Assembly (NCBI GenBank): GCA_013286315.1
Contig: JABDFX010000017.1
Span: 1-39,636 of the forward strand
Reading direction: 5' to 3'
DNA length: 39,636 nucleotides
Source of the DNA: Bacteroidota bacterium
GTDB taxonomy: Bacteria > Bacteroidota > Bacteroidia > Chitinophagales > Chitinophagaceae
Of this stretch, positions 1,585 through 20,267 are shown piece by piece (position 1 is the stretch's first letter; the number at the start of each line of letters is the position of its first letter). A program made the translations under genes and the position numbers. Under the pieces are notes generated by a model. The model ran no database searches and was not told the origin of the DNA. It was given only the letters and a program-made list of their open reading frames with translations.

Positions 1585-1619
1585 ATACAAATTACATAGT
1601 TTTTATAAAACTGACTCCG

Positions 1620-1818
1620 TAGTGTGGTGAATATGCAAAGTGTGATGAGTGTGGGAATGTGAAAGTTAAATTTGAAAATATAGTGTGAAAGACACTTACC
1701 AAATGATAAGTGAAAAACACCTGGCAAATGATCTGTGAAAATCACATTAACTCATTGTCATTTTCAAATTTAACTTTCACATTCTCACTTTTATCACGCT
1801 CCCTCATTCACCACATTA
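1620..1818. repeat. Long inverted repeat enclosing three 25-nt tandem units
   Basis: The left arm (1620-1679) and right arm (1760-1818) are imperfect reverse complements over about 60 nt. They include a perfect 25-bp core (1655-1679 against 1760-1784). The space between holds three units of exactly 25 nt: 1685-1709, 1710-1734 and 1735-1759. Each starts GTGAAA; the first two also share CAAATGAT, while the third diverges after its first 12 nt. The element sits between the stop of one T9SS gene and the start of its paralogue, both on the minus strand. It could be a MITE- or REP-like element, or a large structured RNA in the 5' leader of the downstream gene. It contains no ORF. Confidence 0.8.
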
Positions 1819-1857
1819 CTTTAATTCGTTAAGCAAGGCTTAACGAATTAAAGTAAT
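1815..1857 (-). terminator. Perfect 20-bp stem with 3-nt loop overlapping the stop codon
   Basis: Positions 1815-1834 and 1838-1857 are perfect reverse complements around the loop AAG. The upstream half of the stem is the coding sequence for the last residues (ITLIR) and stop of the T9SS gene at 1840-5628. No clear U-tract follows on the minus strand, so this may be a termination or mRNA 3'-end stabilising stem rather than a classical intrinsic terminator. Confidence 0.7.
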
Positions 1858-7854: not shown

Positions 7855-8748
7855 ATGAAATATTACTTACAGTTGCTAAGACCCAAAGACTGGGCAAAAA
7901 ATCTTTTTTTAATTGTTCCCTCCTTTTTTGCAGGTCAGTTTTTTGTTCGCGCCCGGTTTCTTCATTTAATGGAAGGAATTGTTTCATTTTGTTTTATTGC
8001 CTCGGCCATTTATATCATAAATGATTACCGGGATATTGAAGACGACAGAAAACATCCCGTAAAATGCAACCGCCCGCTGGCTTCGGGAAAAGTAGAAAAA
8101 CCGGCAGCTGTCGGTATCTGTATCGGATTGCTTTTATTGGGTACCATTCTGGGCCTGCTGGCGGACCCGCATTATCAATTTCTGTTTATCCTGATCCTTT
8201 ATTTTTTTATCAACCTGTTTTATTCATTCGGGCTTAAAAATTTTGCTATCCTGGATATCCTGATGCTTTCCTCGGGCTTTGTACTCCGCGTAAAGGGAGG
8301 GGCGATCATATCCAGCGTGGAAGCCACGGAATGGCTGATTATCATGACATTTCTATTGTCCCTTTTTATGGCCATTGCCAAACGGCGGGATGACCTTTTA
8401 CTGAAAGTAACAACAGGAACGGATATGCGAAAGTCGATGAGGGGCTATAATCTCGACTTTCTGAATACAATGCTGGGATTATCCAGCGCCATCGTGATCG
8501 TCGCTTACATTAATTATACCGTTTCACCGGTAACGGTGGCCCGTTTGGGTACACACAGCCTGTATTATTCAAGCCTATTTGTTATTGCGGGCCTGATGCG
8601 TTACCTGCAGATCACATTTGTACTGAAGAAATCAGGATCTCCTACAGAGATCCTGTATAAAGATCACTTTATACAGGTTACCCTGGTTTTATGGGTTTTA
8701 AGCATTTATGCCATATTATATTTGAGGAATACGACAATATTTGCGTGA
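7855..8748 (+). CDS. UbiA-family polyprenyl-phosphate transferase (DPPR synthase-like)
   Basis: A 297-residue integral membrane prenyltransferase starting MKYYLQLLRPKDWAKN. The first Asp-rich motif NDYRDIEDDRKHP (residues 56-68) is followed by KCNRPLASGK. This pattern is characteristic of the decaprenyl-phosphate phosphoribosyltransferase branch (Rv3806c-like) rather than of quinone or heme enzymes. A second conserved region, YSFGLKNFAILDILMLSSGFVLRV, follows. Several hydrophobic segments are visible. It likely transfers 5-phosphoribosyl from PRPP to a polyprenyl phosphate in the inner membrane, giving a lipid-linked pentose donor (inference from family). It opens the polysaccharide cluster. 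Its TGA stop lies inside the first unit of heptanucleotide array B. Confidence 0.85.
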   Translation: MKYYLQLLRPKDWAKNLFLIVPSFFAGQFFVRARFLHLMEGIVSFCFIASAIYIINDYRDIEDDRKHPVKCNRPLASGKVEKPAAVGICIGLLLLGTILGLLADPHYQFLFILILYFFINLFYSFGLKNFAILDILMLSSGFVLRVKGGAIISSVEATEWLIIMTFLLSLFMAIAKRRDDLLLKVTTGTDMRKSMRGYNLDFLNTMLGLSSAIVIVAYINYTVSPVTVARLGTHSLYYSSLFVIAGLMRYLQITFVLKKSGSPTEILYKDHFIQVTLVLWVLSIYAILYLRNTTIFA

Positions 8749-8922
8749 GGCGTGAGACGGGAGGCAGGAGGCGGGAGGCGTGAGGCGTGAAGCGGGAAGC
8801 GGGAGGCTTGAGGCCAAGGCGAAGGCGTAAGGCATGAGGAGTAAGGCTCAACTCATTTGGCGTTCAGCGTCCCGCGTCCAGCGTCCCGCGTCCAGCATCT
8901 GGCGTCCAGCATCCAGTGATGC
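8743..8922. repeat. Heptanucleotide array B (GCGTGAG / GCGTCCA), fills the intergenic gap
   Basis: From 8743 to 8812 there are ten consecutive 7-mers of the type GC(G/T/A)(T/G)GA(G/A). Two 6-mers and four 7-mers follow to 8852, then a 7-nt spacer TCATTTG. From 8860 to 8915 there are eight units alternating GCGTCCA and GCGTCCC with variants GCATCTG, GCATCCA and GCGTTCA. Essentially the whole gap between the UbiA-family gene and the HAD gene is made of this array. The stop codon of the UbiA-family gene is within unit one. Confidence 0.9.
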
Positions 8923-8930
8923 CGTTATGA

Positions 8931-9557
8931 ATGTTCAAGTTTAAACTTCAGCAGGTGAATGAAAAGAAGATTGCCTTTTTTGATTTTGACGGCACAATCA
9001 CAACCAAAGACAGTTTGCCGGAAATTATAAAATTTCTGAAGGGGAGAACTGCATATTATACCGGGATCTTATTGAATATGCATTGGTTCATGGCTCATCA
9101 GATCAATCTCATATCGGGCGACCTGTTAAAAGAAAAAATACTTTCTTATTTTTTTTCCGGGACGCTGGAAAATATTTTTCAGGAGCAATGTGACCTGTTT
9201 GCGGACCGCGTACTGCCTGGTTTGATCAGACAGGGAGCTATCGCCGAAATGGATCAACTCCGGAAAGAAGGTTTTGAGATGGTCATTGTTTCGGCGTCCG
9301 CAGAAAATTGGATCAGGAATTTTGCGAAGCGGCTGTCCCTGGAATTAATTGCCACCAAACTGGAAGTGAAGAATGGTGTGGTCACGGGGAAAATTGAAGG
9401 AAAGAATTGTAAAGGCGGCCAGAAAGTACTTTGCATAAAGGAGCGATGGGATCTGGCGGCTTATGAAGAAATTTATGTTTATGGTGATACAGCTGCTGAC
9501 AAACCCATGATGGCACTGGCAACCCGATCATTTTATCAGCCATTCAGAAAAGCATGA
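8931..9557 (+). CDS. HAD-IB family phosphatase
   Basis: A 208-residue haloacid-dehalogenase hydrolase of the SerB-like IB type. Motif I is FFDFDGT (Asp18 nucleophile, Asp20), motif II is VIVSASAENW, motif III is in the KGGQK region, and motif IV is YGDTAADKPMM. The cap is alpha-helical and short, as in phosphoserine-phosphatase relatives. The gene lies directly after the UbiA-family transferase and overlaps the next GT2 gene by 4 nt (ATGA), so translational coupling is likely. In mycobacteria the phosphoribosyl-lipid is dephosphorylated by an unrelated PAP2-type enzyme. This HAD protein may do that job here (inference), although free phosphoserine or another phosphomonoester cannot be excluded. 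ATG at 8931 was chosen; a GTG at 8955 is an alternative. Confidence 0.85.
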   Translation: MFKFKLQQVNEKKIAFFDFDGTITTKDSLPEIIKFLKGRTAYYTGILLNMHWFMAHQINLISGDLLKEKILSYFFSGTLENIFQEQCDLFADRVLPGLIRQGAIAEMDQLRKEGFEMVIVSASAENWIRNFAKRLSLELIATKLEVKNGVVTGKIEGKNCKGGQKVLCIKERWDLAAYEEIYVYGDTAADKPMMALATRSFYQPFRKA

Positions 9558-10768
9558 TTTTTTTTTACCTGATATGTCATATCATCACCTGGGCGGTATT
9601 TATTTATTTCGCTGCAAACACGCTGTATCTTTTTGTTATGGCGCTTTTTGGCCGGCTGACCAGGGCGAGGAAATATATTATACAAAGTGAAAAACACCGT
9701 ATTGCAGTGCTTATTCCCAGTTTCAGGGAGGATCAGGTTATTGTAGATACAGCGCTTCAAACCAGGGAACATGATTATCCCGGATCCCGGTTTACAATCA
9801 CTGTTATAGCTGATAAGCTGAAACCGGAAACGATGCAAATGCTAAAGCAGATTCCGGTGAATGTTTTAGAAGTAAATCTGGGTATGAAGTCACGTTCTCT
9901 TCATGCAGCACTTGAATCACCGGAGATCAGAGATTCCGAAATCGTCATGATCCTGGACGCAGACAATATCATGGCGCCCGGCTGTCTGGAAAAAGTGAAT
10001 GCAGCATTCCATGCAGGGATCAAGGCTATGCAATGTCACCGCACGGCAAAAAATAAAAATTCCGAGGTAGCCCTGCTGGATGCGATGAGTGAGGAAATCA
10101 ATACAAACCTGTTCCGGCGCGGTCCGGCGCTTGCGGGTTTATCAGCTACACCGAACGGTTCCGGGATGGCTTTTGATACGACGCTTATACGTGATATATT
10201 TTCATCCCGGGAAATTCTCGAAAATCCGGGAGAAGACAGGGAGATTGATATGCAACTGATACAACGCAAAATAAAAATGGAATTTCTGGATGATGCATTT
10301 ATCTATGACGAAAAAGTTGCTACTGCAGGCGTATTTGAAAAACAACGTATCCGCTGGCTGGAAGCACAGGTAAATCATGTGCGGCGGTTTTTTGACGGCG
10401 ATATGAAGACAGGCCAGAAAACCATTGTTTTCATCAACAAGTTTTTTCAGAATTTATTGCTTCCCCGCGTGTTGACCCTGGTGGTTTTTTCCATTATCAT
10501 GGTCATACTTCTAATTCAGCATTTATTTCAACTGCCTTTGATCAGGCCGGTGTTCGTTGTATGGGCATCCATGATGGGCCTTTATTTATTAACACTGCTG
10601 ATTTCCATACCCCGCATATTTTATAGCACCAAAACATTATGGGCCATGAGCCGGCTTCCGTTACTCATGTTTGCGATGATGCGTGCAGTTCTGCAAATGA
10701 AAAAAAAACGAAGAGAGTTTATTCATACACCGAAGACTTTTGTAGAAAGCCAAAAGCCTAAAGCCTAA
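9554..10768 (+). CDS. Membrane GT2 glycosyltransferase
   Basis: A 404-residue family 2 glycosyltransferase. One transmembrane helix precedes the catalytic domain and two or three follow it (LTLVVFSIIMVILLIQ, VVWASMMGLYLLTLLISI). The catalytic signature includes IAVLIPSFRED, the DxD motif MILDADN, a GED-like EDREIDMQL, and QRIRWLEAQ (QxxRW), as in processive, cellulose-synthase-like GT2 enzymes. The start overlaps the HAD stop. The last residues (SQKPKA) and the TAA stop are encoded by heptanucleotide array C, so the native C-terminus may have been replaced by repeat expansion. Role: polysaccharide synthesis or export at the inner membrane; sugar unknown. Confidence 0.88.
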   Translation: MIFFYLICHIITWAVFIYFAANTLYLFVMALFGRLTRARKYIIQSEKHRIAVLIPSFREDQVIVDTALQTREHDYPGSRFTITVIADKLKPETMQMLKQIPVNVLEVNLGMKSRSLHAALESPEIRDSEIVMILDADNIMAPGCLEKVNAAFHAGIKAMQCHRTAKNKNSEVALLDAMSEEINTNLFRRGPALAGLSATPNGSGMAFDTTLIRDIFSSREILENPGEDREIDMQLIQRKIKMEFLDDAFIYDEKVATAGVFEKQRIRWLEAQVNHVRRFFDGDMKTGQKTIVFINKFFQNLLLPRVLTLVVFSIIMVILLIQHLFQLPLIRPVFVVWASMMGLYLLTLLISIPRIFYSTKTLWAMSRLPLLMFAMMRAVLQMKKKRREFIHTPKTFVESQKPKA

Positions 10769-10780
10769 AGCCCAAGACAA
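10746..10780. repeat. Heptanucleotide array C (AAAGCCT)
   Basis: Units AAAGCCA, AAAGCCT, AAAGCCT and AAAGCCC, then a degenerate AAGACAA. They cover the last codons and the TAA stop of the GT2 gene that ends at 10768. Confidence 0.85.
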
Positions 10781-10814
10781 GTGTGGTAAATGTGGAAGGC
10801 CACATTCACCACAC
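10781..10814. terminator. Bidirectional hairpin between convergent GT2 genes
   Basis: GTGTGGTAAATGTGG (10781-10795) pairs with CCACATTCACCACAC (10800-10814) at 14 of 15 positions around the loop AAGG. It sits between arrays C and D in a convergent junction, so it could terminate both genes, although no strong T-tract follows. The stem sequence GTGTGGTGAATG is also present in the arms of the inverted repeat at 1620-1818. Confidence 0.65.
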
Positions 10815-10825
10815 TACAAAGTCCG

Positions 10826-10874
10826 GCGTTACGAGTTAAGCGTTAAGCGTTAAGCGTTAAGCGTTCAGCTTACA
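10826..10874. repeat. Heptanucleotide array D (GCGTTAA)
   Basis: Units GCGTTAC, GAGTTAA, three GCGTTAA, GCGTTCA and GCTTACA in one register. The last unit contains the TAA stop (minus strand) of the GT2 gene at 10870. Confidence 0.88.
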
Positions 10875-11787
10875 CAGGGGATTTACTGGAATGAGTCAGA
10901 TTGTAAGTTATTCCCTTCAGGAACCATTTTAGTTTTATAAAATGACCGCTGATCAGACAGGCGATAATTGTTTTGGGAATCGTAAACAGAATAAAAAAAA
11001 GGCCGAATACCAGCAAATTAAATGCTGAACTATTTCTACGCATATACAAAATGCGGTTTCTCGTAAGATAATATGTTTTCATAGGGTTTTCCTTGCCCAC
11101 CGTCATCGATTCTTTATGCAAAATGGTGGCGTCAGACTGATACCAGATAAGGTATCCCGCTTTTTGCACCCTTGCCGACCAATCCCATTCCTCGTAATAA
11201 AGGAAAAAATTCTCGGGGAACAGACCGGTTTTTTCAATCACTTCTTTTTTTACCATCATCGCACAGCCATGCGCGCCATTCGTGACACCTGACACATTGT
11301 ATTGTCCGTTATCTGTTTCATGATCGCCGATGGAGGATGTTCTTCCGGTAAATGGATTCATCGGCCGGAAGCCCGCGTATTGAATAATGCGGGGGTCGTC
11401 GAAATATTTTATTTTGGGACAAACAATCCCGATAGAGGGGTTTTGGTAAAATGGCTGAATCAGGCGCTGGATGATATCGGGCGTGAGATCGGTATCGTTA
11501 TTTACTATAAAAACAAATTCGCCCCGGGCCTGTCGTATTCCCCAGTTATTTCCCCCCGCGAATCCCAGGTTCTTTGTACTTACCAGAAGTCTTGCATTCG
11601 GATAATCGACGCCTTTGAAGATGGTCCCGGGATCCTCACTGGAAGCCATATCACATATCAGTATTTCGAAAAAGGGATAAAGCAGTCTTTTGCTGGATTC
11701 CAAAAATTCCGCCGTAACGGCCGCCTGATTATAATTCAGCGTAATGATGGAAACAAGGGGTTGATAACCTGCTTCGGATAAATTCAT
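10870..11787 (-). CDS. GT2 glycosyltransferase, rhamnosyltransferase (WbbL-like) type
   Basis: A 305-residue family 2 glycosyltransferase. The N-terminal nucleotide-sugar fold begins VSIITLNYNQAAVT. Then come NLGFAGGNNWGIRQA and the DxD-type motif FIVNNDTDLTPD, and later FFLYYEEWDWSARVQKAGY, a pattern common in WbbL/RfbF-type rhamnosyltransferases. One hydrophobic segment lies near the C-terminus (LLVFGLFFILFTIPKTIIA). It probably adds one sugar to a lipid-linked repeat unit on the cytoplasmic face. It lies 37 nt downstream of the priming sugar transferase, so it is probably in the same operon. Donor specificity cannot be read from the sequence. Confidence 0.88.
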   Translation of the reverse strand: MNLSEAGYQPLVSIITLNYNQAAVTAEFLESSKRLLYPFFEILICDMASSEDPGTIFKGVDYPNARLLVSTKNLGFAGGNNWGIRQARGEFVFIVNNDTDLTPDIIQRLIQPFYQNPSIGIVCPKIKYFDDPRIIQYAGFRPMNPFTGRTSSIGDHETDNGQYNVSGVTNGAHGCAMMVKKEVIEKTGLFPENFFLYYEEWDWSARVQKAGYLIWYQSDATILHKESMTVGKENPMKTYYLTRNRILYMRRNSSAFNLLVFGLFFILFTIPKTIIACLISGHFIKLKWFLKGITYNLTHSSKSPV

Positions 11788-11824
11788 TCCGGGAAGATAA
11801 TACGGAATGCCGGTCTGTAAAATC

Positions 11825-12994
11825 TTAAGCGCTTGATTTTTGAATAATAGCAGAAGGCGTATTGGCCATTATCCAAAGGTCGTACATGAAATTATACTTG
11901 TTGGCATAATCAATATCCAGACTGATTCTTTCTTCCACAGACATGTCTTCGCGACCTCTTTTTTTGATCTGCCACAGACCGGTCATACCGGCCGGCGCGA
12001 GAAAGCGCTGGGCGCACTGGTCTGTTGTCAGCGTTGCTGCTTCGTAAAGCGGAAGAGGGCGGTTACCAACCAGCGACATATCTCCCATCAATACATTCAG
12101 CAACTGGGGTAATTCGTCCAGACTGGTATTTCTCAGAAATTCACCTACTCTGGTAACACGGGGATCGTTATTGAATTTGAAGAAAGTCGGTTCCTTTTTT
12201 TCATCTTCTGTATATTGATTCAGATGTGAAAGTTCCTGCACACGGCTTTCCGCCCCGGTGAACATGGTTCTGAATTTAAAGAAGTCAAATATTCTGTAAC
12301 CACGGCCCGCTCTTTTTGAGATATAAAAAGTGGGTCCTTTGGATTCAATCCGGATGGCCAGTGCAATCAGAAAAAACAGTGGACTTAATAGAATCAAGGC
12401 GGTCAGCGAAACCAGTATATCAAAACTGCGTTTCAAAATACTATGCAGATTAGTAGTGGAAACAACCCTGGCTTCGTCTTCTTTGAGGCTGACGTTCATT
12501 TCGATGGCTTTCGATTTCACCTTATTCAAAAAACGCACTTTGCCCAACAGTGAATTATGTTCAGAAGCTTCTATCAGCATGATATCGTCGGCCAGCATAT
12601 GCTTTTTATACAGAGCCATATCTGCTTCGCCCAGATGCGCTGAATCCATTATAAAGGGGATGCTGTTAAACTGTGGGGTGCTCTGAAGGAACTGAACGAA
12701 TTTTTTTACAGTTGAAAAATCAAAACTCGATTCACAAAAAATAACTTCGGGCAATGTATTTTTTTCCTGCTCAATAGAACGTTTTAATTCAGCACGCGCG
12801 TTATCGATGCTGTCGGAGGCATAACCACGTTTGAAAAGTTTAACTAATTTTTCAATATTGGCAGGATTTTTGCCGATATAATAAAATCCGCTGTGAACAA
12901 TACTTATGCTCGCGCAAACCTCTTTTGCGGGCAGGCTATATCTTACAAAAACTTTTGCTTTGTAAGCAGATTTGGGTAGAATTGTAAAATCCAT
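11825..12994 (-). CDS. Priming sugar-phosphate transferase with receiver-like N-terminal domain
   Basis: The C-terminal half is a bacterial sugar transferase domain (WcaJ/PglC family). It has a membrane-entering segment (RSFDILVSLTALILLSPLFF), then KFRTM, DELPQLLNVLMGDMSLVGNRP and GMTGLWQI, and it should load the first sugar-1-phosphate onto undecaprenyl phosphate. The N-terminal 190 or so residues lack the usual transmembrane helices. Instead they resemble an alpha/beta receiver-like fold (PEVIFCESSFDFSTV, IPFIMDSA, DDIMLIEA) without a clear phospho-acceptor Asp. A genuine CheY-like gene ends 39 nt upstream of this ATG. A TTG at 13018 would add eight residues; ATG at 12994 (MDFTILPKS) was preferred. 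Confidence 0.9.
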   Translation of the reverse strand: MDFTILPKSAYKAKVFVRYSLPAKEVCASISIVHSGFYYIGKNPANIEKLVKLFKRGYASDSIDNARAELKRSIEQEKNTLPEVIFCESSFDFSTVKKFVQFLQSTPQFNSIPFIMDSAHLGEADMALYKKHMLADDIMLIEASEHNSLLGKVRFLNKVKSKAIEMNVSLKEDEARVVSTTNLHSILKRSFDILVSLTALILLSPLFFLIALAIRIESKGPTFYISKRAGRGYRIFDFFKFRTMFTGAESRVQELSHLNQYTEDEKKEPTFFKFNNDPRVTRVGEFLRNTSLDELPQLLNVLMGDMSLVGNRPLPLYEAATLTTDQCAQRFLAPAGMTGLWQIKKRGREDMSVEERISLDIDYANKYNFMYDLWIMANTPSAIIQKSSA

Positions 12995-13033
12995 ATTCAG
13001 GTTAACATTAATTTTCAAAAGTACCGTCAGCGA

Positions 13034-13438
13034 TTAAACTGCTTTCATCGGGTAATAGGTATCCAGTGATTTATTCTCTATCAATTGTTGTACCGCGTTC
13101 ACCAGGTATACCGGATTAAACGGTTTCAGAAAATATTTTTGAACTGAATAAGCTGAACATTTTTCTTCCGTTTCCTCGGCATTCAAACCAGATAAAACCA
13201 TCACCGGAATATTTTTATAAATTCCACTGGATGATAACTGTTGTATCAGTTCCCAGTTTTCCAGGTCCGGCAATTGCGGATCAGCAATAATCAGATGTGG
13301 AAAGTTTCTCTTCGACAACCAGTGCATTGCTGAACAACCATCTGGTACTGTTATTACCTGATAAGATTTTCCGAGTACTGTTTGAAGCAAAAACCGAATC
13401 GCCTTACTGTCGTCTACTGCTAAAATTTGCTTTTTCAT
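13034..13438 (-). CDS. Single-domain CheY-like response regulator
   Basis: A 134-residue stand-alone receiver domain. The acidic pair is Asp9/Asp10 (ILAVDDS), the phospho-acceptor is Asp53 (LIIADPQLPD), the switch residue is Ser83 (VMVLSG), and the conserved Lys is Lys105 (YFLKPFNP). All catalytic positions are present, so phosphorylation is expected. There is no output domain and no kinase gene in the window. It sits directly upstream of the priming transferase, whose N-terminus looks like a degenerate receiver, which suggests post-translational control of polysaccharide initiation by protein contact (inference). A GTG at 13468 would extend it by ten residues; the ATG at 13438 aligns with the normal start of receivers. 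Confidence 0.93.
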   Translation of the reverse strand: MKKQILAVDDSKAIRFLLQTVLGKSYQVITVPDGCSAMHWLSKRNFPHLIIADPQLPDLENWELIQQLSSSGIYKNIPVMVLSGLNAEETEEKCSAYSVQKYFLKPFNPVYLVNAVQQLIENKSLDTYYPMKAV

Positions 13439-13764
13439 GGGCAGAAGTCCTTGATTTAAATTTGACACTATTCCTCAGTAGGCTGGAATTTTTGGTACAC
13501 GGCTACAAACGGTATTGGCATCTAAGGTTAGACTTTAGATATGGATGAACATCAGGAATTATAAGAAATGAATCAGCAATCTTGTGGGGATTTCAAGGAT
13601 GGATGGCTGATTATACCCGAATGAATGGGAATTTGAGGGCTTCAGAGGAATTGAACGGATTATTAGAAATTCTACGATAAAAGTAGGTATTTTTTCCTAA
13701 GATCCAAATAATGCCTGCCCTTTTTTTAACCAGCTGTATAATACAATCAAAAAATCGTGCCGGG
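13439..13764. other. Intergenic region upstream of the response regulator
   Basis: 326 nt without a supported gene on either strand. It holds a short inverted repeat, ATCTAA (13520-13525) with TTAGAT (13535-13540). It must contain the promoter of the regulator/transferase/GT2 unit, but no clean TAnnTTTG box was found on the minus strand (closest: TACCGTTTG near 13507-13515, one base too long). Confidence 0.5.
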
Positions 13765-15015
13765 TTATGGATGAATATCCCTTGATGATTTATCCCATGT
13801 TACAGGCTGTTTGCGGCCGATGAACCGGAAGAAGCCCAGGAACATCGACAAGTTCATAAAAAAGAAGTAATAAGGTATGTAGAAAGCCTTGATTTTCAAG
13901 TTTCGGCGGGCGAATAACCATCCGGCGACTGCGATTGAGTAAAATACGATCTGGGCTAGTAAAAAGATCTCGTAAAAGCTCCTTTGCCCATTCACAACCA
14001 GTGAAACGTTTGTAAAAAAACAAATGAGCAGGCAAACAGGGCATAGTGTCCATCGCAGGATTCTGTGCGAAATAAATTGAAAAGATAAAAGAGGATACTT
14101 ATACACGTTAAAAAGCTTTTTAAGTATGATCATGGCCTGAAAGGCCCCTGCAGCAATTCGTACTTTTCGCTTTTGTTCCTCCCTGATTGAAACGGAAGCA
14201 GACTCCGTAGCATAAGCTTTTGGTTCATACCGGACAAGATATCCATCCAAACATATTTTCAGCGACTGAACAAAGTCTTCAATGATGATATCTTCGGCGA
14301 TCTGGTGAAAATGGGAGGTCTTTACGGAAAATAATTCTCCCGCCGCACCCACAACGGAATACAATTCCGAATCCAGTTTTTTGAGAAGGGATTCATATTT
14401 CCAATAAATACTTTCTCCGGATCCAACGGCATTGTCTCTCCCTTCGGAGATTATTTTTTTTTCTCCGGCCACAGCAGCTACCAATGGGTCGGCATAGTGT
14501 TTCAGGATTTCCCGCACAGCGGTTTTATTAATCAGGGTATTCGCGTCAGAAAATATTACATAGGGGGTTTCTACATATTTCATCGCCCGGTTTATTGCCG
14601 CCACTTTTCCCTTTCTTTCTGTTTGGTGCAATAATAACACGCTGCTATATCCGCGAATGATATCAGCTGTCGCATCTGTTGAACCATCCGTTATGAAGAT
14701 CCACCTGAGTTTGCCTGCAGGATAATCCAGATCCAGACTGTTTCTCAATTTAATTTCTATGCAATCAGCTTCATTATAGGCAGCAACGACGAGTGTTACG
14801 TCGGGTTCAAAAATGATTGGCGGGTCGACAGCTGACGGTTGACAGTTGACAGTTTTTTCGTTGTCCGATGATCCCGGGCTAGCGTTAAGCGTTAAGCGTT
14901 GAGCGTTCGGCTTAAAAAGTCTTTTTAGTTTTATAATCAGGTAAATGAGTAAACCGTATCCGATATAACTATAGAAAATAATAAACAGGCTGAAAAAAAA
15001 CAGAAACTTAACCAT
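13765..15015 (-). CDS. Membrane GT2 glycosyltransferase with heptad-repeat insertion
   Basis: About 416 residues. An N-terminal transmembrane helix (residues 4-29) is followed by a linker and the GT2 catalytic domain: VTLVVAAYNEADCIE, ITDGSTDATADI, FSDANTLINK, IIEDFVQSLKI, and the Q/RxxRW-like EEQKRKVRIAAGA. At least two C-terminal transmembrane segments follow, so it is probably processive (poly-N-acetylglucosamine-synthase-like). The linker (residues 34-64) is encoded by two heptanucleotide arrays (feature at 14827-14915) and is probably not part of the ancestral enzyme. ATG at 15015 (MVKFLFFF) was preferred over TTG at 15021. It is separated from the downstream regulator by 326 nt. Confidence 0.88.
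   Translation of the reverse strand: MVKFLFFFSLFIIFYSYIGYGLLIYLIIKLKRLFKPNAQRLTLNASPGSSDNEKTVNCQPSAVDPPIIFEPDVTLVVAAYNEADCIEIKLRNSLDLDYPAGKLRWIFITDGSTDATADIIRGYSSVLLLHQTERKGKVAAINRAMKYVETPYVIFSDANTLINKTAVREILKHYADPLVAAVAGEKKIISEGRDNAVGSGESIYWKYESLLKKLDSELYSVVGAAGELFSVKTSHFHQIAEDIIIEDFVQSLKICLDGYLVRYEPKAYATESASVSIREEQKRKVRIAAGAFQAMIILKKLFNVYKYPLLSFQFISHRILRWTLCPVCLLICFFTNVSLVVNGQRSFYEIFLLAQIVFYSIAVAGWLFARRNLKIKAFYIPYYFFFMNLSMFLGFFRFIGRKQPVTWDKSSRDIHP
14827..14915. repeat. Two heptanucleotide arrays E inside a GT2 coding sequence
   Basis: Array E1 (14827-14854) has GACAGCT, GACGGTT, GACAGTT and GACAGTT. Array E2 (14881-14915) has AGCGTTA, AGCGTTA, AGCGTTG, AGCGTTC and GGCTTAA. Both are read through in the GT2 frame (minus strand), encoding residues about 34-46 (NAQRLTLNA) and 54-64. 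Two TAA triplets already present in E2 lie in the two unused frames. By simple arithmetic, adding one more identical AGCGTTA unit would put a TAA in the coding frame. Confidence 0.88.
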
Positions 15016-15377
15016 TGTCAACCATTGGTGGGCGCTAATTTAAAAGATTCAACCGAGGGGGCGGCCGATATTCATTTTATTCTTTTATTGCGAACCGTAA
15101 AAACGACGGATCATGGCTGTCATTTAATTTTGGTTTCTGGATTTAATTATTATTTTTGACCGGATTGGTTCTTCTAATCAGTTGATTGCCTGTATATAAT
15201 CACATTTTTAAGCTTTCCTGGGCAGAAGAATCATACCATGGGCAAAATGATCACGCAACGTGATGACCGGCGGTGAAAGCATTGACTTCTTCTGATTCCT
15301 TTCTGAAAATAACCCGTTCGAATATCTGAAAAACATTCACATGCAGAACTGTTATCCCAGATCTGTTTATATCGAAA
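15016..15377. other. Divergent intergenic region with promoter and palindrome
   Basis: 362 nt between the minus-strand GT2 gene and the plus-strand GT1 gene, with no supported ORF. It holds a good Bacteroidota promoter at 15129-15158. In the GT1 leader there is a perfect small palindrome, ATCACG CAA CGTGAT (15250-15264), which could be an operator or a hairpin. The implied leader of roughly 210 nt before the GT1 ATG is long for this group. Confidence 0.6.
15129..15158 (+). promoter_or_regulatory. Bacteroidota promoter TTTG-N18-TATTTTTG
   Basis: TTTG at 15129-15132 and TATTTTTG at 15151-15158, spaced 18 nt. This is a near-ideal match to the TTTG / TAnnTTTG sigma-ABfr consensus. It points toward the GT1 gene at 15378. 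Confidence 0.65.
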
Positions 15378-16589
15378 ATGGCGCACCAATTCATAAAAAA
15401 CAGGGATATTGTCTTATTCAGTTTTCAGCCATGGAACCTGGGGATTGCCTTCAATTTTAAGGATATGGCGTTTGAACTTGCCCGTTATAACCGGGTATTG
15501 TTCATAGATCGTGCCCACGACAGGCGTTCGATCCTGAAAAGAATCTTTGTCCCGAAAAAGCGGGAAACGGAAAACAGGGGAACACCCGAGCTGATCCAGG
15601 ATAATATGTGGATACTTCATCCCAGGTCGATGCTGGAATCGGGCAATTGGTCACCTACATATAAACTTTTTGATTTCTTCAACAGAACGAATAATAAAAG
15701 ACTGTCAGCGGAGATCAAAAAAGCGATTCGTGATTTGAATTTCACTGATTGCCTGATGATCAATGACAATGATTTCTTCAGGGGTTTGTATCAGAAATCC
15801 CTCCTGCCGATCCGTGATTACATTTTTTATATACGGGATGCGCTGACCAGCCAGCCCTATTTTAGAAAATATGGTCCCCGCTGCGAAATGGAAATGATTC
15901 AAAAAGCGGATCTCGTTGTGGCCAATTCCGCCTGGCTAGCGGAATATGCCGGGCAATGGAACCCAAATAGTGTCGATATTGGTCAGGGTTGTAACCTGGA
16001 AGGTTTTATAAAGGAAGATCTGCCCGAGCCCATAGATATGAAATCGATTCCAAGGCCCATTGCAGGCTATTGCGGCGCCGTGAATTCCATGAGACTGGAT
16101 GAGCAGCTTCTCATGGATATTGCGCGCTCCCTGCCTGAAATAAGCCTTGTATTGGTTGGGCCTGCGGACAGCCGGTTCGCCAATAGTCAGCTCAGACTCC
16201 TGAACAATGTATATTTTCTCGGATTAAAACCACCGGATCAGGCTGCAGCTTATGTACATCAGTTCACTGTATGCATAAATCCCCAATCCGTAAATCCGTT
16301 GACGATGGGCAATTACCCGAGAAAAATAGATGAATACCTGGCCTCCGGCAAACCGGTCGTTGCCACAGCAACGGCAGCGATGGAAATGTTTCGCGCATTC
16401 ACTGAATTATGCAATTCAAAAGAAGAATTTATAAAGGCGATCCGGAAGCTGGTGAATCAGCCGGACACCGACTCCGGAAAATCAAGGGATGAAAGAAGAA
16501 ATTTTGCGCTGACCCATAGTTGGGAGAATTCGATCGGCGCACTGGGAGACGCATTTTATTCCACAGAAAAAAAGTATAGTACAACATAA
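15378..16589 (+). CDS. GT1-family (GT-B fold) glycosyltransferase
   Basis: 403 residues with no signal peptide or clear transmembrane helix. The N-terminal half (FSFQPWNLGIAFNFKDMAFELARYNRVLFID) looks like the acceptor-binding Rossmann domain of GT-B enzymes. The C-terminal half carries IAGYCGAVNSMRLDEQLL, ISLVLVGPADSRF, VYFLGLKPPDQAAAY and the donor-site segment PRKIDEYLASGKPVVATAT, typical of family 1/4 transferases. It probably acts in the cytoplasm on the same polysaccharide as the neighbouring GT2 enzymes (inference from context). ATG at 15378 was chosen; the upstream ATG at 15341 is in another frame. Substrate unknown. Confidence 0.82.
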   Translation: MAHQFIKNRDIVLFSFQPWNLGIAFNFKDMAFELARYNRVLFIDRAHDRRSILKRIFVPKKRETENRGTPELIQDNMWILHPRSMLESGNWSPTYKLFDFFNRTNNKRLSAEIKKAIRDLNFTDCLMINDNDFFRGLYQKSLLPIRDYIFYIRDALTSQPYFRKYGPRCEMEMIQKADLVVANSAWLAEYAGQWNPNSVDIGQGCNLEGFIKEDLPEPIDMKSIPRPIAGYCGAVNSMRLDEQLLMDIARSLPEISLVLVGPADSRFANSQLRLLNNVYFLGLKPPDQAAAYVHQFTVCINPQSVNPLTMGNYPRKIDEYLASGKPVVATATAAMEMFRAFTELCNSKEEFIKAIRKLVNQPDTDSGKSRDERRNFALTHSWENSIGALGDAFYSTEKKYSTT

Positions 16590-16657
16590 ATACAAATTGT
16601 ATCGTTTTGCCCATTATGATAAGTAAAGGAAGCATAACCGGTTACGACACATTTTGT

Positions 16658-16665
16658 ACCTTTGG
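16658..16665 (+). promoter_or_regulatory. -7 box TACCTTTG upstream of the T9SS mini-protein
   Basis: It matches TAnnTTTG and lies 45 nt before the ATG at 16711. No TTTG -33 element was found at the right spacing. The same core, GTACCTTTG, recurs in the grpE promoter. Confidence 0.5.
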
Positions 16666-16710
16666 CAAAATTTTGGTATATTGTATCCCTGGAACCTTAT
16701 CCAGTAAACT

Positions 16711-17058
16711 ATGAGGATTTTTTACTTTGTTCTCCTTATGGTGCTTTTTTCTGCGGCCGGGGCTCAGGCCCAGAACCGCCCGGTTGGCTTTGCGGATAAC
16801 GCAATTCCATCCACCGTTCACTTTTATCCAAACCCTGCGACATCGATTATTACTTTCGAAGATTTCGCAAAAAAATACGACAAGAATTATACGATCCAGC
16901 TATTTAATTTTCTTGGTAAAAAAGTTTATGAATTCAATCTGGCTGACCAAAAAAATATAGTAAACCTCTCCGATTTTTTCCGGGGTATTTATATCTACCA
17001 GCTCCGGGATCCTACAGGCAAAATTGTTGAAAGCGGCAAATTTCAGGTAAACAAATAA
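16711..17058 (+). CDS. Cargo-less type A T9SS sorting-domain protein
   Basis: 115 residues. A signal peptide (FYFVLLMVLFSAAGAQA then QNRP) is followed after only about 15 residues by a complete type A sorting domain: VHFYPNPATSIITFE, then IQLFNFLGKKVYEFNL, then LSDFFRGIYIYQLRD, ending ESGKFQVNK. In known T9SS substrates this domain is a C-terminal tail on a large enzyme or adhesin; here there is essentially nothing else. The protein should be exported and processed by T9SS. Its function is unknown: it could be a small surface or periplasmic protein of its own, or the relic of a larger gene. It converges on the rRNA methyltransferase gene with a 20-nt gap. Confidence 0.85.
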   Translation: MRIFYFVLLMVLFSAAGAQAQNRPVGFADNAIPSTVHFYPNPATSIITFEDFAKKYDKNYTIQLFNFLGKKVYEFNLADQKNIVNLSDFFRGIYIYQLRDPTGKIVESGKFQVNK

Positions 17059-17078
17059 TCTACTCTTTTATTTTCTGA

Positions 17079-18254
17079 CTAGTCAGATACTTCGATAATC
17101 AGGAATTTCAAATAATGTGTATTCTCCAGCCCCCAGGCGATCGGATGGTCCGGTGACTGCGCCTGATATGTTACCTGTCTTATTTTTTTGCCGGCATCCT
17201 TTGCCGCAGACCGGATGGTGTCCAGGAACAGTTGCGGTGGCACCAGGTTGGTACAGGAAGAACTGACAAGGAATCCACCTGAACGCAGCAATTTCATTCC
17301 TCTCAGATTGATTTCCTTATAACCGCTGACGGCTTTTCCGATATTTTCCCGGCTCTTTGTAAAAGCAGGCGGATCCAGCATAACTACGTCGAATTTCTTA
17401 TTTTCCTTTGCCCATTTTTTTAAAACGTCGAATGCATTCACTGCTTCAAAACGCACCCTGTTTTCAAGTCCGTTCAAATGAGCGTTTTTCCTGGCAGCGG
17501 CAATTGCATTTTCCGATATGTCCAGTCCGAGTACAGATTTTGCCCCATAATGCCCGGCATGTAACTCAAAACTTCCCGTATAGCAAAACGCACCCAATAC
17601 ATCCGCATCTTTTACAATATGCCGGATCGCACGGCGGTTATCCTGCTGATCCAGAAAATACCCGGTTTTTTGTCCGTTTTCCAAATCCACCTCCATTTTG
17701 ATCCCGTTTTCCTGAATAATAATTTTTGTGTCAAAAGGAGTGGATAAAAATCCCTTTTGCTGAACCATTCCTTCCAGTTCCCTGACCGGTACGTCATTTC
17801 GTTCATATATTTTATCTGTAAGAAATATTAGCTCCAGGGCAGATACAATAGCGGGTTTCCAAACGTCGATTCCCAGTGCAAGGGTCTGAATTACAAAGTG
17901 TTCACCAAATTTGTCGATGATCAGGCCGGGTAAACCGTCTGCTTCACCGAAAACCAGCCGGCAGTTTTCTGTATAGCCAATTTTTTTTCGATAATTCCAG
18001 GCAGCTTCCATGCGTCCGTGGATAAAACGGGAATCCACCAATTCGTTTTCATTCCGGGTAAGCAAACGGATGGCAATCTGTGACCGTGGATTAAAAAAGC
18101 CCTTTCCGAGAAATTTTTTGTCCCCGCTGAAAACGGTTACTATATCGCCCGGTTTTACAGCCTCGTCGGCTTCGGCAATTTCATTGCCGAATATCCAGGG
18201 ATGGCCATTTTCAATGCGCAGGCCGATTTTTTTCTTTAGTATGACTGGAATCAT
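17079..18254 (-). CDS. Class I SAM-dependent rRNA methyltransferase, RlmI family
   Basis: 391 residues. The N-terminal PUA RNA-binding domain (about 1-75: HPWIFGNEI, VKPGDIVTVFSGDKKFLGKGFFNP) is followed by a middle domain with GEADGLPGLIIDKFG. The Rossmann methyltransferase domain carries the SAM motif VLGAFCYTGSFELHAGHYGA, the acidic motif VLGLDISENAI, the catalytic VMLDPPAF and the conserved SSSCTNL. Members methylate cytosine in 23S rRNA (RlmI makes m5C1962 in E. coli). Length matches the family. Its TAG stop lies at the centre of the perfect 12-nt palindrome CTGACTAGTCAG (17075-17086), in the gap shared with the convergent T9SS mini-gene. Confidence 0.92.
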   Translation of the reverse strand: MIPVILKKKIGLRIENGHPWIFGNEIAEADEAVKPGDIVTVFSGDKKFLGKGFFNPRSQIAIRLLTRNENELVDSRFIHGRMEAAWNYRKKIGYTENCRLVFGEADGLPGLIIDKFGEHFVIQTLALGIDVWKPAIVSALELIFLTDKIYERNDVPVRELEGMVQQKGFLSTPFDTKIIIQENGIKMEVDLENGQKTGYFLDQQDNRRAIRHIVKDADVLGAFCYTGSFELHAGHYGAKSVLGLDISENAIAAARKNAHLNGLENRVRFEAVNAFDVLKKWAKENKKFDVVMLDPPAFTKSRENIGKAVSGYKEINLRGMKLLRSGGFLVSSSCTNLVPPQLFLDTIRSAAKDAGKKIRQVTYQAQSPDHPIAWGLENTHYLKFLIIEVSD

Positions 18255-18313
18255 GGCGCAAAATTACCGGAGCCGGATCAGTTCAAAGAAGACAATTTGT
18301 CTCAAATAAGCAG

Positions 18314-18343
18314 TTGGCAAAATAATTGACAATTGTACCTTTG
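18314..18343 (+). promoter_or_regulatory. Promoter of grpE-dnaJ
   Basis: TTGG at 18314-18317, an 18-nt spacer, and TACCTTTG at 18336-18343, a good TAnnTTTG box. The grpE ATG follows at 18360. No CIRCE-type inverted repeat was seen next to it. Confidence 0.65.
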
Positions 18344-18359
18344 CCAGAATTTCCTATAA

Positions 18360-18941
18360 ATGCAAATGAATATTGAAAATATGTCGGAAGAAAGGGATTT
18401 TGATACTGTAAATGGCAGAGAATCAACGGTTGACATAAATACCGATGAGAATGTGGCCGGCACCCATCACCTGAACCAGGTGCTGGACGAAGACGATCTG
18501 CTGGAAAAAGCGAATGCTGAGCTACAGGAGCAAAAGGATAAATATCTGCGCCTGATGGCTGAATTTGACAATTATAAACGCCGCAGTGCCCGTGAAAGGG
18601 TAGAATTGAGCCAGACTGCCGGAAAGGAAATTATCATTTCCCTGCTCGACGTTCTCGATGACTGTGACAGAGCGGAGAAGCAATTACAGCAGGAAAACAA
18701 CACAAAGGATCTGAGTGGCGTTTTGTTGGTATTCAACAAACTTCGTAACCTGCTGCAAAGCCGGGGACTGAGGGCTATGGAAAGTCTCCATACAGAATTT
18801 GATGTGGAGAAACACGAAGCTATCAGTGAAGTACCGGCGCCTTCTCCCGAACTCAGGGGTAAGGTGATCGCAGAAGTTATGAAGGGTTATTATTTAAACG
18901 ATAAAATTATCCGTTTCGCGAAAGTGATCGTTGGAAAATAG
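18360..18941 (+). CDS. grpE: Nucleotide exchange factor GrpE
   Basis: 193 residues. An acidic, variable N-terminus (about 1-45) leads into the long dimerisation helix (AELQEQKDKYLRLMAEFDNYKRR), a four-helix region (ISLLDVLDDCDRAEKQL), and the C-terminal beta domain (EFDVEKHEAISEVPAP, ending YLNDKIIRFAKVIVGK). It releases ADP from DnaK in the heat-shock cycle. dnaJ begins 9 nt downstream, giving a grpE-dnaJ operon as is usual in Bacteroidota; dnaK is not in the window. ATG at 18360 follows the promoter closely; a second ATG two codons later is possible. Confidence 0.97.
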   Translation: MQMNIENMSEERDFDTVNGRESTVDINTDENVAGTHHLNQVLDEDDLLEKANAELQEQKDKYLRLMAEFDNYKRRSARERVELSQTAGKEIIISLLDVLDDCDRAEKQLQQENNTKDLSGVLLVFNKLRNLLQSRGLRAMESLHTEFDVEKHEAISEVPAPSPELRGKVIAEVMKGYYLNDKIIRFAKVIVGK

Positions 18942-18950
18942 GAAATCTGA

Positions 18951-20105
18951 ATGAAAAGAGATTATTACGAAATACTGGGCATTACTAAATCTGCCTCCGC
19001 GGAAGAAATAAAAAAATCCTACCGAAAGGTAGCGATGCAATATCATCCGGATCGCAACCCGGGTGATAAACCTGCTGAAGAAAAGTTCAAGGAGGCTGCC
19101 GAAGCCTATGAGGTTTTAAGCAACTCTGAAAAACGTGCCCAATACGATCGGTACGGACACGCAGCAGTTAATAACGGCCGGGGTGGATTCAATGGCGGCG
19201 GGATGAACATGGATGATATCTTCAGCCAGTTCGGTGATGTTTTCGGCGATGATATTTTCGGTAGTTTTTTCGGAGGTCGCAGAGGGGGCGGTGGTAACTC
19301 CCGTTCGCATGGTATTCGCGGCTCCAACCTTCGCATAAAAATCAAACTCACTTACGAAGAAATCGCCCGGGGGGTAAACAAAAATATCAAAGTAAAAAAA
19401 CACGTACCCTGTGGAACCTGCCATGGCAGCGGTGCCAGGGATAAAGCAAGTGTTCAGACCTGCGGTACCTGCGGCGGCAGCGGACAGGTAAGGCGGGTTA
19501 GCAATACATTCCTGGGTCAGATGCAGACGGTAACAACCTGTCCGACCTGTAACGGGGAAGGAACGACGATCACAGCAAAATGTACTGTATGTAAAGGGGA
19601 GGGAAGAGTGTTTGGGGAAGAAGTTGTCAATATTGATATCCCGGCCGGCGTACAGGAAGGTATGCAGTTAAGCGTTTCAGGAAAAGGAAATGCAGGAGAG
19701 CGGGGTGGATCTCCCGGAGACCTGATTATCCTGATTGAGGAAGAAGCACATCCAGAATTACAGCGCGACGGATTAAACGTTGCGTTCGATTTATACATTT
19801 CCTTCACGGATGCCGTCTTTGGTCTGCAGGTTGAAGTACCTACCATCGATGGAAAAGCCAAGATCCGTATACCGGCAGGCACACAGAGTGGAAAAATATT
19901 CCGGTTAAAAGGAAAAGGATTTCCTTCCGTGAATTCCTACGAGAAGGGGGACCAGCTCATTCACGTCAATGTATGGACGCCGCAACAGGTTTCTGTGGAA
20001 GAAAAGGTCATTCTGGAAAATCTCAGTGACTCTCCGAATTTCCAACCCAAGCCCGATAAAAACGAGAAGAGCTTTTTTGATAAGGTTAAAGAGATGTTCT
20101 CTTAA
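18951..20105 (+). CDS. dnaJ: Chaperone DnaJ (Hsp40)
   Basis: 384 residues, full length. The J-domain carries HPD at residues 32-34 (YHPDRNPGD). A Gly/Phe-rich linker (about 75-125) follows. Four CxxCxGxG zinc motifs are present: [24 protein letters not shown] and CTVCKGEG. The C-terminal substrate-binding domains ([38 protein letters not shown]) complete the protein. It stimulates the DnaK ATPase and delivers unfolded clients. The TAA stop is the first triplet of heptanucleotide array F, and a strong intrinsic terminator follows about 60 nt downstream. Confidence 0.98.
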
Positions 20106-20151
20106 GCCTAAAGCCCAAGGCCTAACGCCTAAAACTTTTTTTAAGCCTAAG
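20103..20151. repeat. Heptanucleotide array F (TAAGCCT) at the dnaJ stop
   Basis: Units TAAGCCT (containing the dnaJ TAA), AAAGCCC, AAGGCCT and AACGCCT cover 20103-20130. A T-run and a relic TTAAGCCTAA (20141-20150) follow. Confidence 0.85.
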
Positions 20152-20163
20152 CAATTAAAATAT

Positions 20164-20197
20164 AAGGTCCTACTGACAAATCAGATGGACCTTTTTT
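20164..20197 (+). terminator. Intrinsic terminator after dnaJ
   Basis: AAGGTCC (20164-20170) pairs with GGACCTT (20187-20193). An inner stem CTGA/TCAG closes a CAAA loop, and the hairpin runs into a T-tract ending at 20197. This is the clearest intrinsic terminator in the window. It lies between arrays F and G at the dnaJ/PorP convergent junction. Confidence 0.88.
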
Positions 20198-20218
20198 ATT
20201 GATTAATTTTTTTTGCAT

Positions 20219-20267
20219 CAAGCCTCAAACCTCCCGCCTCCTGCCTCCCGCACCTAAAACCTGGGAC
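20219..20267. repeat. Heptanucleotide array G (CCCGCCT) at the PorP/SprF stop
   Basis: Units CAAGCCT, CAAACCT, CCCGCCT, CCTGCCT and CCCGCAC, then degenerate CTAAAAC and CTGGGAC. The TAG stop of the minus-strand PorP/SprF gene (20254-20256) falls inside, so the last codons of that gene come from the array. Confidence 0.82.

What the first reader, a model, noticed from the sequence alone, without database searches (positions are those of the whole stretch)
8743..20267. A family of 7-bp tandem arrays whose intergenic members all cover a stop codon
Intergenic arrays B, C, D, F and G (8743-8922, 10746-10780, 10826-10874, 20103-20151, 20219-20267) share unit length 7 and a GC(G/C)T core with three variable bases (GAG, CCA, AAA, TAA, CCC). 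In all five, the stop codon of the adjacent gene (UbiA-family TGA, GT2 TAA, GT2 TAA on minus, dnaJ TAA, PorP TAG on minus) is inside a repeat unit. Different arrays have different unit sequences, so they are not copies of one element; each seems to have expanded locally under a common rule. This is unlike REP or STRR elements with a fixed sequence. Possible roles: 3'-end processing or termination, protein binding, or replication slippage at gene ends.
Basis: seen in the sequence. Interest (0 to 1): 0.78.

Follow-up and report, generated by a model that had tools for sequence, protein, structure and literature searches.

The report
Mirrored short-repeat arrays at gene ends
Runs of 7-letter DNA repeats really do sit against gene stop codons in this Bacteroidota genome; they look like parts of fold-back repeats that entered gene ends after related species split, a richer form of something already described in Xanthomonas and Nostoc.

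Summary
The arrays are real and the stop-codon link extends beyond the window. In a 440-kb sample (window plus 400 kb of the own genome), 42 of 93 gene 3' flanks of intergenic 7n-period arrays lie within 3 nt of the array, against 12.8 (sd 2.0) for random placement in the same gap; starts give 7 of 77 against 5.3. 'All intergenic members cover a stop' is too strong: B, C and F overlap one, D and G end 0 and 2 nt short, A covers none, E lies in a coding sequence.

'Expanded locally' is not supported. A few word families recur across the genome. At stops they mostly read one way on the adjacent gene's coding strand (32 of 48; 3 opposite, 1 tie, 12 unassigned). Many form mirrored arms. Sister species often carry other words at the same gene end. 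Array-abutting genes usually stop where their relatives stop (26 of 32), so repeats do not supply the stops. At dnaJ/PorP the two stops overlap in four relatives; here 148 bp of array-hairpin-array separates them.

Best reading: dispersed fold-back elements with species-specific words, growing in 7-8-bp steps and halting at coding sequence. Function unproven. Closest precedent: Xanthomonas/Nostoc heptamers (PMC4692102).

The parts
1529..1551 (.). Array A, unit AAAGCGT, at the 5' end of a minus-strand gene; covers no stop
1619..1819 (.). Mirrored element: arms GTAGTGTGGTGAATATG (+, 1619-1635) and GTAATGTGGTGAATGAG (-, 1803-1819), one of 36 copies within 2 mismatches in the genome
   Evidence: sequence
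8743..8916 (.). Array B: left half GAGGCGT-type words, right half GCGTCCA-type words in opposite orientation; UbiA TGA at 8746-8748 overlaps its start; in G015 and G007 two genes lie here instead
10746..10772 (+). Array C, unit AAAGCCT, over the GT2 TAA (10766-10768); reaches about 20 nt into the coding sequence
10780..10815 (.). Hairpin between arrays C and D (AGTGTGGTAAATGTGG / CCACATTCACCACACT)
   Evidence: C-D region z -4.17
10826..10869 (-). Array D, unit GCGTTAA (TTAACGC on the coding strand of the minus GT2 gene), ending at that gene's stop (10870-10872)
14823..14907 (.). Arrays E (GACAGTT and AGCGTTA), inside the open reading frame of a minus-strand GT2 gene; not seen at this place in G015 and G007
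20104..20133 (+). Array F, unit AAGCCTA, starting in the dnaJ stop codon (20103-20105)
20164..20197 (.). Hairpin AAGGTCC/GGACCTT followed by a run of T between arrays F and G (terminator-like)
   Evidence: seen; paired in the fold
20230..20251 (-). Array G, unit CCTCCCG, 2 nt from the PorP stop (20254-20256, minus strand)

Best explanation
The arrays are parts of dispersed fold-back elements built from short words of 7 (sometimes 8) bp. Each array-bearing species uses a few words, shared between many loci. Elements enter the small gaps behind genes, most often between convergent genes. Their arms grow and shrink in steps of one word (inferred: replication slippage plus fold-back copying of one arm from the other), and spread is checked where coding sequence begins, so an arm ends at or just over the existing stop codon. 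The word is usually read in a fixed direction on the coding strand of the gene it abuts, so two convergent genes give mirrored arms that can pair. Shown: period, recurrence of words, stop abutment, mostly fixed orientation and polarity, insertion relative to relatives at several loci, different words in sister species at several loci. Inferred: slippage, fold-back copying, dispersal between loci (mechanism unknown), and that most elements are tolerated rather than needed. If they act at all, the likeliest effect is a hairpin in the mRNA 3' end between opposing genes.
For: Stop abutment 42 of 93 vs 12.8 sd 2.0, starts 7 of 77 vs 5.3. Orientation on the coding strand 32 sense, 3 antisense, 1 tie, 12 unassigned of 48; the three main words together 24:0. 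Listed opposite-strand neighbours within 250 nt always in one order: ATGTG word 23 of 23, GTAGTGTGG word 12 of 12, GCST word 7 of 7 (from lists). Neighbouring arrays are inverted copies more than expected: own genome 10 of 32 vs 2.3, G014 12 of 12 vs 1.1. Significant inverted repeats in gaps of 40-400 nt: G014 convergent 26 of 32, tandem 46 of 93, divergent 8 of 23; G007 7 of 13, 5 of 66, 4 of 25; own 9 of 30, 16 of 125, 4 of 42; four array-poor congeners 0 of 13, 0 of 86, 0 of 24. dnaJ and PorP stops overlap in G015, G007, G005 and G019 and are separated by 148 bp of array-hairpin-array here. Other words at the same gene ends in sister species: C1:23566, C1:28641, window C/D. In G007 the C/D gap holds an inverted repeat whose two arms both contain GAGAATTGA, the last two codons and stop of both genes, as expected if one arm was copied from the other.
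Against: Mirrored arms are not the rule everywhere: G015 has significant inverted repeats in only 1 of 9 convergent and 2 of 26 tandem gaps, and most own-genome neighbour pairs (22 of 32) are not inverted-similar. Stop enrichment is weak in G014 (7 of 48 vs 5.1). Words are not always replaced: at C1:21156 and C1:21661 own genome and G007 both carry GGTTG-type words. Fixed polarity and shared words are more than simple slippage predicts. Column-wise clustering of mismatches (65.1 vs 30.1 sd 3.6) could reflect selection on a core or merely duplication of variant units. Own genome is a 58.8%-complete short-contig assembly. No mutation or expression data.
Confidence: 0.55

Rival explanations
1. 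Functional 3'-end elements: the paired arms end or protect transcripts and keep convergent genes from interfering; words change freely as long as arms pair.
For: Bias to convergent and 3' positions; window regions fold better than shuffles (z -4.17, -1.97, -3.19); a terminator-like hairpin lies between F and G; in Xanthomonas transcripts started or stopped more often at quadruplex-capable repeats than at controls (PMC4692102, section read).
Against: Only 3 of 34, 7 of 98 and 2 of 19 flanks past the 3' arm carry TTTT or at least 6 T in 10 (no background computed), so the arms are not canonical intrinsic terminators. Many orthologous gene ends lack any element (3-26 nt gaps). Four congeners examined lack them.
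Confidence: 0.25
2. A transposase-driven miniature element (REP/REPIN or MITE-like) that lands at stop codons.
For: Many copies of fixed pieces (36 of a 17-mer; 8 of a tail), inverted ends, intergenic location, insertion against relatives.
Against: The REP-type transposase family Y1_Tnp (PF01797) was not found in G000, G005, G007, G015, G017 or G019, and is in 2 of 8 array-rich but 13 of 16 other same-genus genomes. Lengths and words vary from locus to locus. Other transposase families were not tested; no target duplication was demonstrated.
Confidence: 0.12
3. Back-up stop signals: a 7-bp word holding a stop triplet gives stops in three frames within 21 nt, catching read-through.
For: Coding-strand words such as TAACGCT, TAAAGCC, TGAGGCG, TGACGGT contain stops; the stop codon matches the array register slightly better than random stops do (48 of 105 vs 40.5 sd 2.6).
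Against: The common GGAGGCA word and GGTTGGC have no stop; 8-bp ATGTG words are used in sister species; the native stop is older than the array in 26 of 32 cases.
Confidence: 0.04
4. Assembly artefact or chance.
For: Metagenome assembly; runs of N inside some arrays show that copy numbers are unreliable.
Against: Reversed-pattern controls 2 and 0 against 189; the same kind of arrays in several independently assembled congeners.
Confidence: 0.03

Closest known systems
GGGAATC / GGGGA(C/T)T heptamer repeats of Xanthomonas and Nostoc (Rehm et al. 2015, PMC4692102; abstract, sections 10, 13-16 read)
   Different: There one G-rich word per lineage, often the same gene context in two species (83%), and a quadruplex interpretation; here several words per genome, 8-bp words too, other words at the same gene ends in sister species, and many words without G-runs
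TAACTGA heptamer repeats of marine Beggiatoaceae, Cyanobacteria and five Bacteroidetes (MacGregor 2015, PMC4679880; abstract, sections 3, 9, 10, 24 read)
   Same: 7-bp tandem words, intergenic, mixed with other heptamers in some Bacteroidetes and Microcystis; the paper already notes that a stop-containing word can overlap a gene end by no more than 18 nt
   Different: Mostly upstream of start codons in the main species; direct, not mirrored, arrays
Repetitive extragenic palindromes, GTAG/CGTC types (PMC3733652; abstract and outline seen)
   Same: Palindromic, downstream of genes, between convergent or unidirectional genes, pairs in opposite orientation
   Different: Fixed 20-40-bp sequence, many linked to a Y1 transposase; here tandem words and no such transposase found in most array-rich genomes
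BrickBuilt minisatellite-in-MITE of Porphyromonas gingivalis (PMC4596501; abstract and outline seen)
   Same: Bacteroidota, intergenic tandem repeats with inverted ends
   Different: 23-bp unit, 19 copies, 49-591 nt from genes
Borg tandem repeats (PMC9879509; search listing and start of abstract only)
   Same: Fast-evolving tandem repeats arising independently
   Different: Archaeal extrachromosomal elements

Membership tests
Heptamer simple-sequence repeats of the Xanthomonas/Nostoc kind (PMC4692102) | Unit of 7 bp repeated head to tail, degenerate at some positions | tested here: met
Heptamer simple-sequence repeats of the Xanthomonas/Nostoc kind (PMC4692102) | Mostly intergenic; close to or over stop codons on the coding strand | tested here: met
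   85 of 96 arrays intergenic; 42 of 93 vs 12.8; 32 sense, 3 anti, 1 tie, 12 unassigned
Heptamer simple-sequence repeats of the Xanthomonas/Nostoc kind (PMC4692102) | Inverted pairs in one orientation | tested here: met
   42 of 42 listed opposite-strand neighbours in the order typical of their word; but only 10 of 32 own-genome neighbour pairs inverted-similar
Heptamer simple-sequence repeats of the Xanthomonas/Nostoc kind (PMC4692102) | Runs of three or more G able to form quadruplexes | tested here: not met
   main words AACGC, AAAGCC, GGTTG, TTGTCAA lack GGG
REP / REPIN | Fixed short palindrome, high copy number | tested here: inconclusive
   GTAGTGTGGTGAATGTG: 36 copies within 2 mismatches, paired, but the arrays themselves vary in word and length
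REP / REPIN | Y1 transposase (RAYT) in the genome | tested here: not met
   PF01797: none at E <= 0.001 in G000 (58.8% complete), G005, G007 (99% complete), G015, G017, G019; present in G014 and G020
MITE | Terminal inverted repeats with target-site duplication | tested here: inconclusive
   mirrored arms yes; at dnaJ/PorP both overlapping stops are kept on either side of the insert, but duplication was not tested across sites
Intrinsic (rho-independent) terminators | Hairpin followed by a T-run | tested here: not met
   12 of 151 flanks in three genomes with T-run past the arm (no background computed); the separate hairpin at 20164-20197 does have one
DNA uptake sequences | Recognition by the uptake machinery | not testable with these tools
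   analogy only (species-specific words, inverted pairs behind genes), recalled

The most novel reading that the evidence does not exclude
A word-based gene-end system: each species maintains its own small vocabulary of 7-8-bp words, placed in a fixed direction behind genes and mirrored between convergent genes, recognised as DNA or RNA by a lineage-specific factor, with the vocabulary replaced between sister species at the same gene ends.
Probability: 0.12. Interest if true: 0.82.

Novelty: new variant of a known kind. Interest (0 to 1): 0.52.

Why it matters
Heptamer arrays in bacteria have been noted since at least 2007 without an agreed cause (per the introductions of PMC4679880 and PMC4692102). 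Here one genus offers species with and without them, bare and filled versions of the same gene end, and different words at one site, so origin by local growth, by copying between loci or by selection can be told apart directly. It also warns that stop-codon overlap of repeats can follow from insertion behind an existing stop.

Tried and rejected
Stops supplied by the repeat (any frame entering a stop-bearing 7-mer array stops within 21 nt): rejected as the main cause, since 26 of 32 array-abutting genes stop where the relative stops. Six of 32 do differ.

Stop codon strictly in register with the array: weak support only (48 of 105 positions vs 40.5 sd 2.6, maximum of 500 draws 48).

REP-transposase origin: Y1_Tnp is commoner in array-poor than in array-rich congeners. 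Loss of the SbcCD hairpin nuclease as a permissive cause: SbcD above its cut-off in 1 of 24 same-genus genomes (G006), so it cannot separate array-rich from array-poor.

Canonical terminators at the arms: no T-run excess seen (no background computed). Rfam: 0 matches in the window at gathering thresholds. Mismatch clustering by column: significant but ambiguous. An earlier count said that the two C/D stops overlap in G015; rechecking one search shows them 7 nt apart, and the report uses the corrected value.

Literature: nine searches. None listed a description of these arrays in Chitinophagaceae (searches returned 0 papers); the library is open-access only.
Full report
What was asked. The window is contig C17 of a 3.31-Mb, 202-contig, 58.8%-complete genome; its nearest named relatives by dnaJ are mostly Chitinophagaceae metagenome assemblies.

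The arrays. Tandem Repeats Finder gives period-7 rows at A 1529-1551, B 8743-8847 and 8867-8893, C 10746-10772, D 10826-10869, E 14827-14854 and 14881-14907, F 20104-20133 and G 20230-20251. Only period 7 and its double stand out between 4 and 14. B, C and F overlap a stop; D and G end 0 and 2 nt from one; A is 288 nt from a gene 3' end; E is in a coding sequence.

Wider sample. I took 400 kb of the own genome and called genes with a simple codon-usage script; its starts are approximate, its stops firm. Merged 7n arrays: 96, of which 85 intergenic and 11 in coding sequence, while 11.8% of the sample is intergenic. Array edges lie within 3 nt of a stop in 42 of 93 flanks (random placement in the same gap 12.8, sd 2.0, maximum 18 of 1000) and of a start in 7 of 77 (5.3). 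Arrays of other periods show a weaker excess (17 of 46 vs 7.2, sd 1.4). The test is not met equally elsewhere: G014 7 of 48 vs 5.1, G017 4 of 7 vs 0.1.

Words and direction. Aligned on the stop, the coding-strand words are AACGC, AAAGCC, GGAGGC (and GGATGC/GGACGC), GGTTG, TTGTCAA and others. Within a family the direction is nearly constant: AACGC 7:0, AAAGCC 5:0, GGAGGC 8:0, GGATGC/GGACGC 4:0, TGACCG 1:0, TTGTCAA 4:1 and one tie, GGTTG 3:2; 12 of 48 unassigned. Sense was defined by the majority, so this shows consistency, not an absolute direction. The stop matches the array register a little more than random stops (48 vs 40.5 of 105); the codon before it does not (29 of 105).

Mirrored arms. 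Neighbouring arrays within 200 nt are inverted-similar in 10 of 32 own-genome pairs (null 2.3) and 12 of 12 in G014 (null 1.1), while direct similarity is 3 (2.1) and 0 (1.1). Significant inverted repeats are commonest between convergent genes (G014 26 of 32, G007 7 of 13, own 9 of 30, G015 1 of 9). In convergent and tandem gaps of the four genomes the 5' arm has more G than C in 83 elements and fewer in 24 (summed; ties left out). Opposite-strand neighbours come in one order only: 23 of 23, 12 of 12 and 7 of 7 for three words (cut and thinned lists).

Relatives. GCST(N3) arrays are found in 6 of 39 genomes searched, among them own, G014 (308), G015 (91), G017 (342) and G020 (16). The 8-bp word ATGTG(N3) is found instead in G005 (53), G007 (86) and G019 (51), with 0 in own, G015 and G017. 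Samples of G009, G010 and G013 have no intergenic period-7 or period-8 rows, G002 has 2.5 period-7 rows per 100 kb, and the four have no significant inverted repeat (0 of 13 convergent, 0 of 86 tandem, 0 of 24 divergent gaps); own genome has 20.0 period-7 rows per 100 kb.

Same gene ends compared. Placing 15 protein segments and fetching the matching stretches gave 25 array-bearing gaps with both neighbours in G007 or G015. In 8 of 25 a relative has only 3-26 nt between the aligned coding ends, stops included. No matching figure for array-free gaps was computed. Of the 6 convergent ones, 4 are of this bare kind in a relative, and the other 2 hold mirrored arrays of other words in the relative. 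Window F/G: dnaJ and PorP stops overlap in G015, G007, G005 and G019 (alignment edges 3 nt apart; sequences of three), and both are kept here on either side of 148 bp. Window C/D: stops 7 nt apart in G015; in G007 a 108-nt insert whose inverted arms both hold GAGAATTGA, ending both genes. Window B: in G015 and G007 two genes, one with a FAD-binding domain, stand where array B stands; loss here or misassembly cannot be told apart. Against constant replacement: two loci carry GGTTG-type words in both own genome and G007.

Gene ends are old. Of 48 stop-abutting arrays, 32 had a relative in the fetched stretches; 26 of 32 genes end within 2 codons of the relative's end.

Mechanism. Shared words, fixed polarity and bare sister sites point to elements that spread between loci and then vary in word number. 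The GAGAATTGA case points to one arm copied from the other. Arrays stop at coding sequence because longer arms would alter proteins; at several loci they do intrude by a few codons (array C, UbiA tail). Slippage and fold-back copying are inferred. The window regions fold better than shuffles, but the arms lack T-runs. A REP transposase is absent from most array-rich genomes.

Known work. PMC4692102 describes nearly the same syndrome for one G-rich word in Xanthomonas and another in Nostoc, including inverted pairs and stop overlap on the coding strand; PMC4679880 describes TAACTGA words. So this is a new variant of a known kind, with a richer vocabulary and turnover at the same sites.

Noticed in passing
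8749-8930: In G015 and G007 two genes (a FAD_binding_4 protein and a 243-aa ORF that I read as a short-chain dehydrogenase) lie between UbiA and the HAD gene; here only array B is present.
   Followed up: partly
1619-1819: Mirrored GTAGTGTGG element with a 25-bp tandem repeat (1685-1745) between its arms.
   Followed up: partly
14823-14907: Two arrays within the open frame of a GT2 gene, near its 5' end, absent at that place in G015 and G007.
   Followed up: no
L109 (G020), downstream of dnaJ: Another vocabulary (GGGAGTC-type, mirrored) between dnaJ and its neighbour.
   Followed up: no
G014 convergent gaps: Long near-perfect palindromes from words such as CTTTGCG, at many gene ends.
   Followed up: partly
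same-genus genomes: SbcD above cut-off in only 1 of 24 genomes of the genus; an SbcC-type domain in 9 of 24.
   Followed up: no
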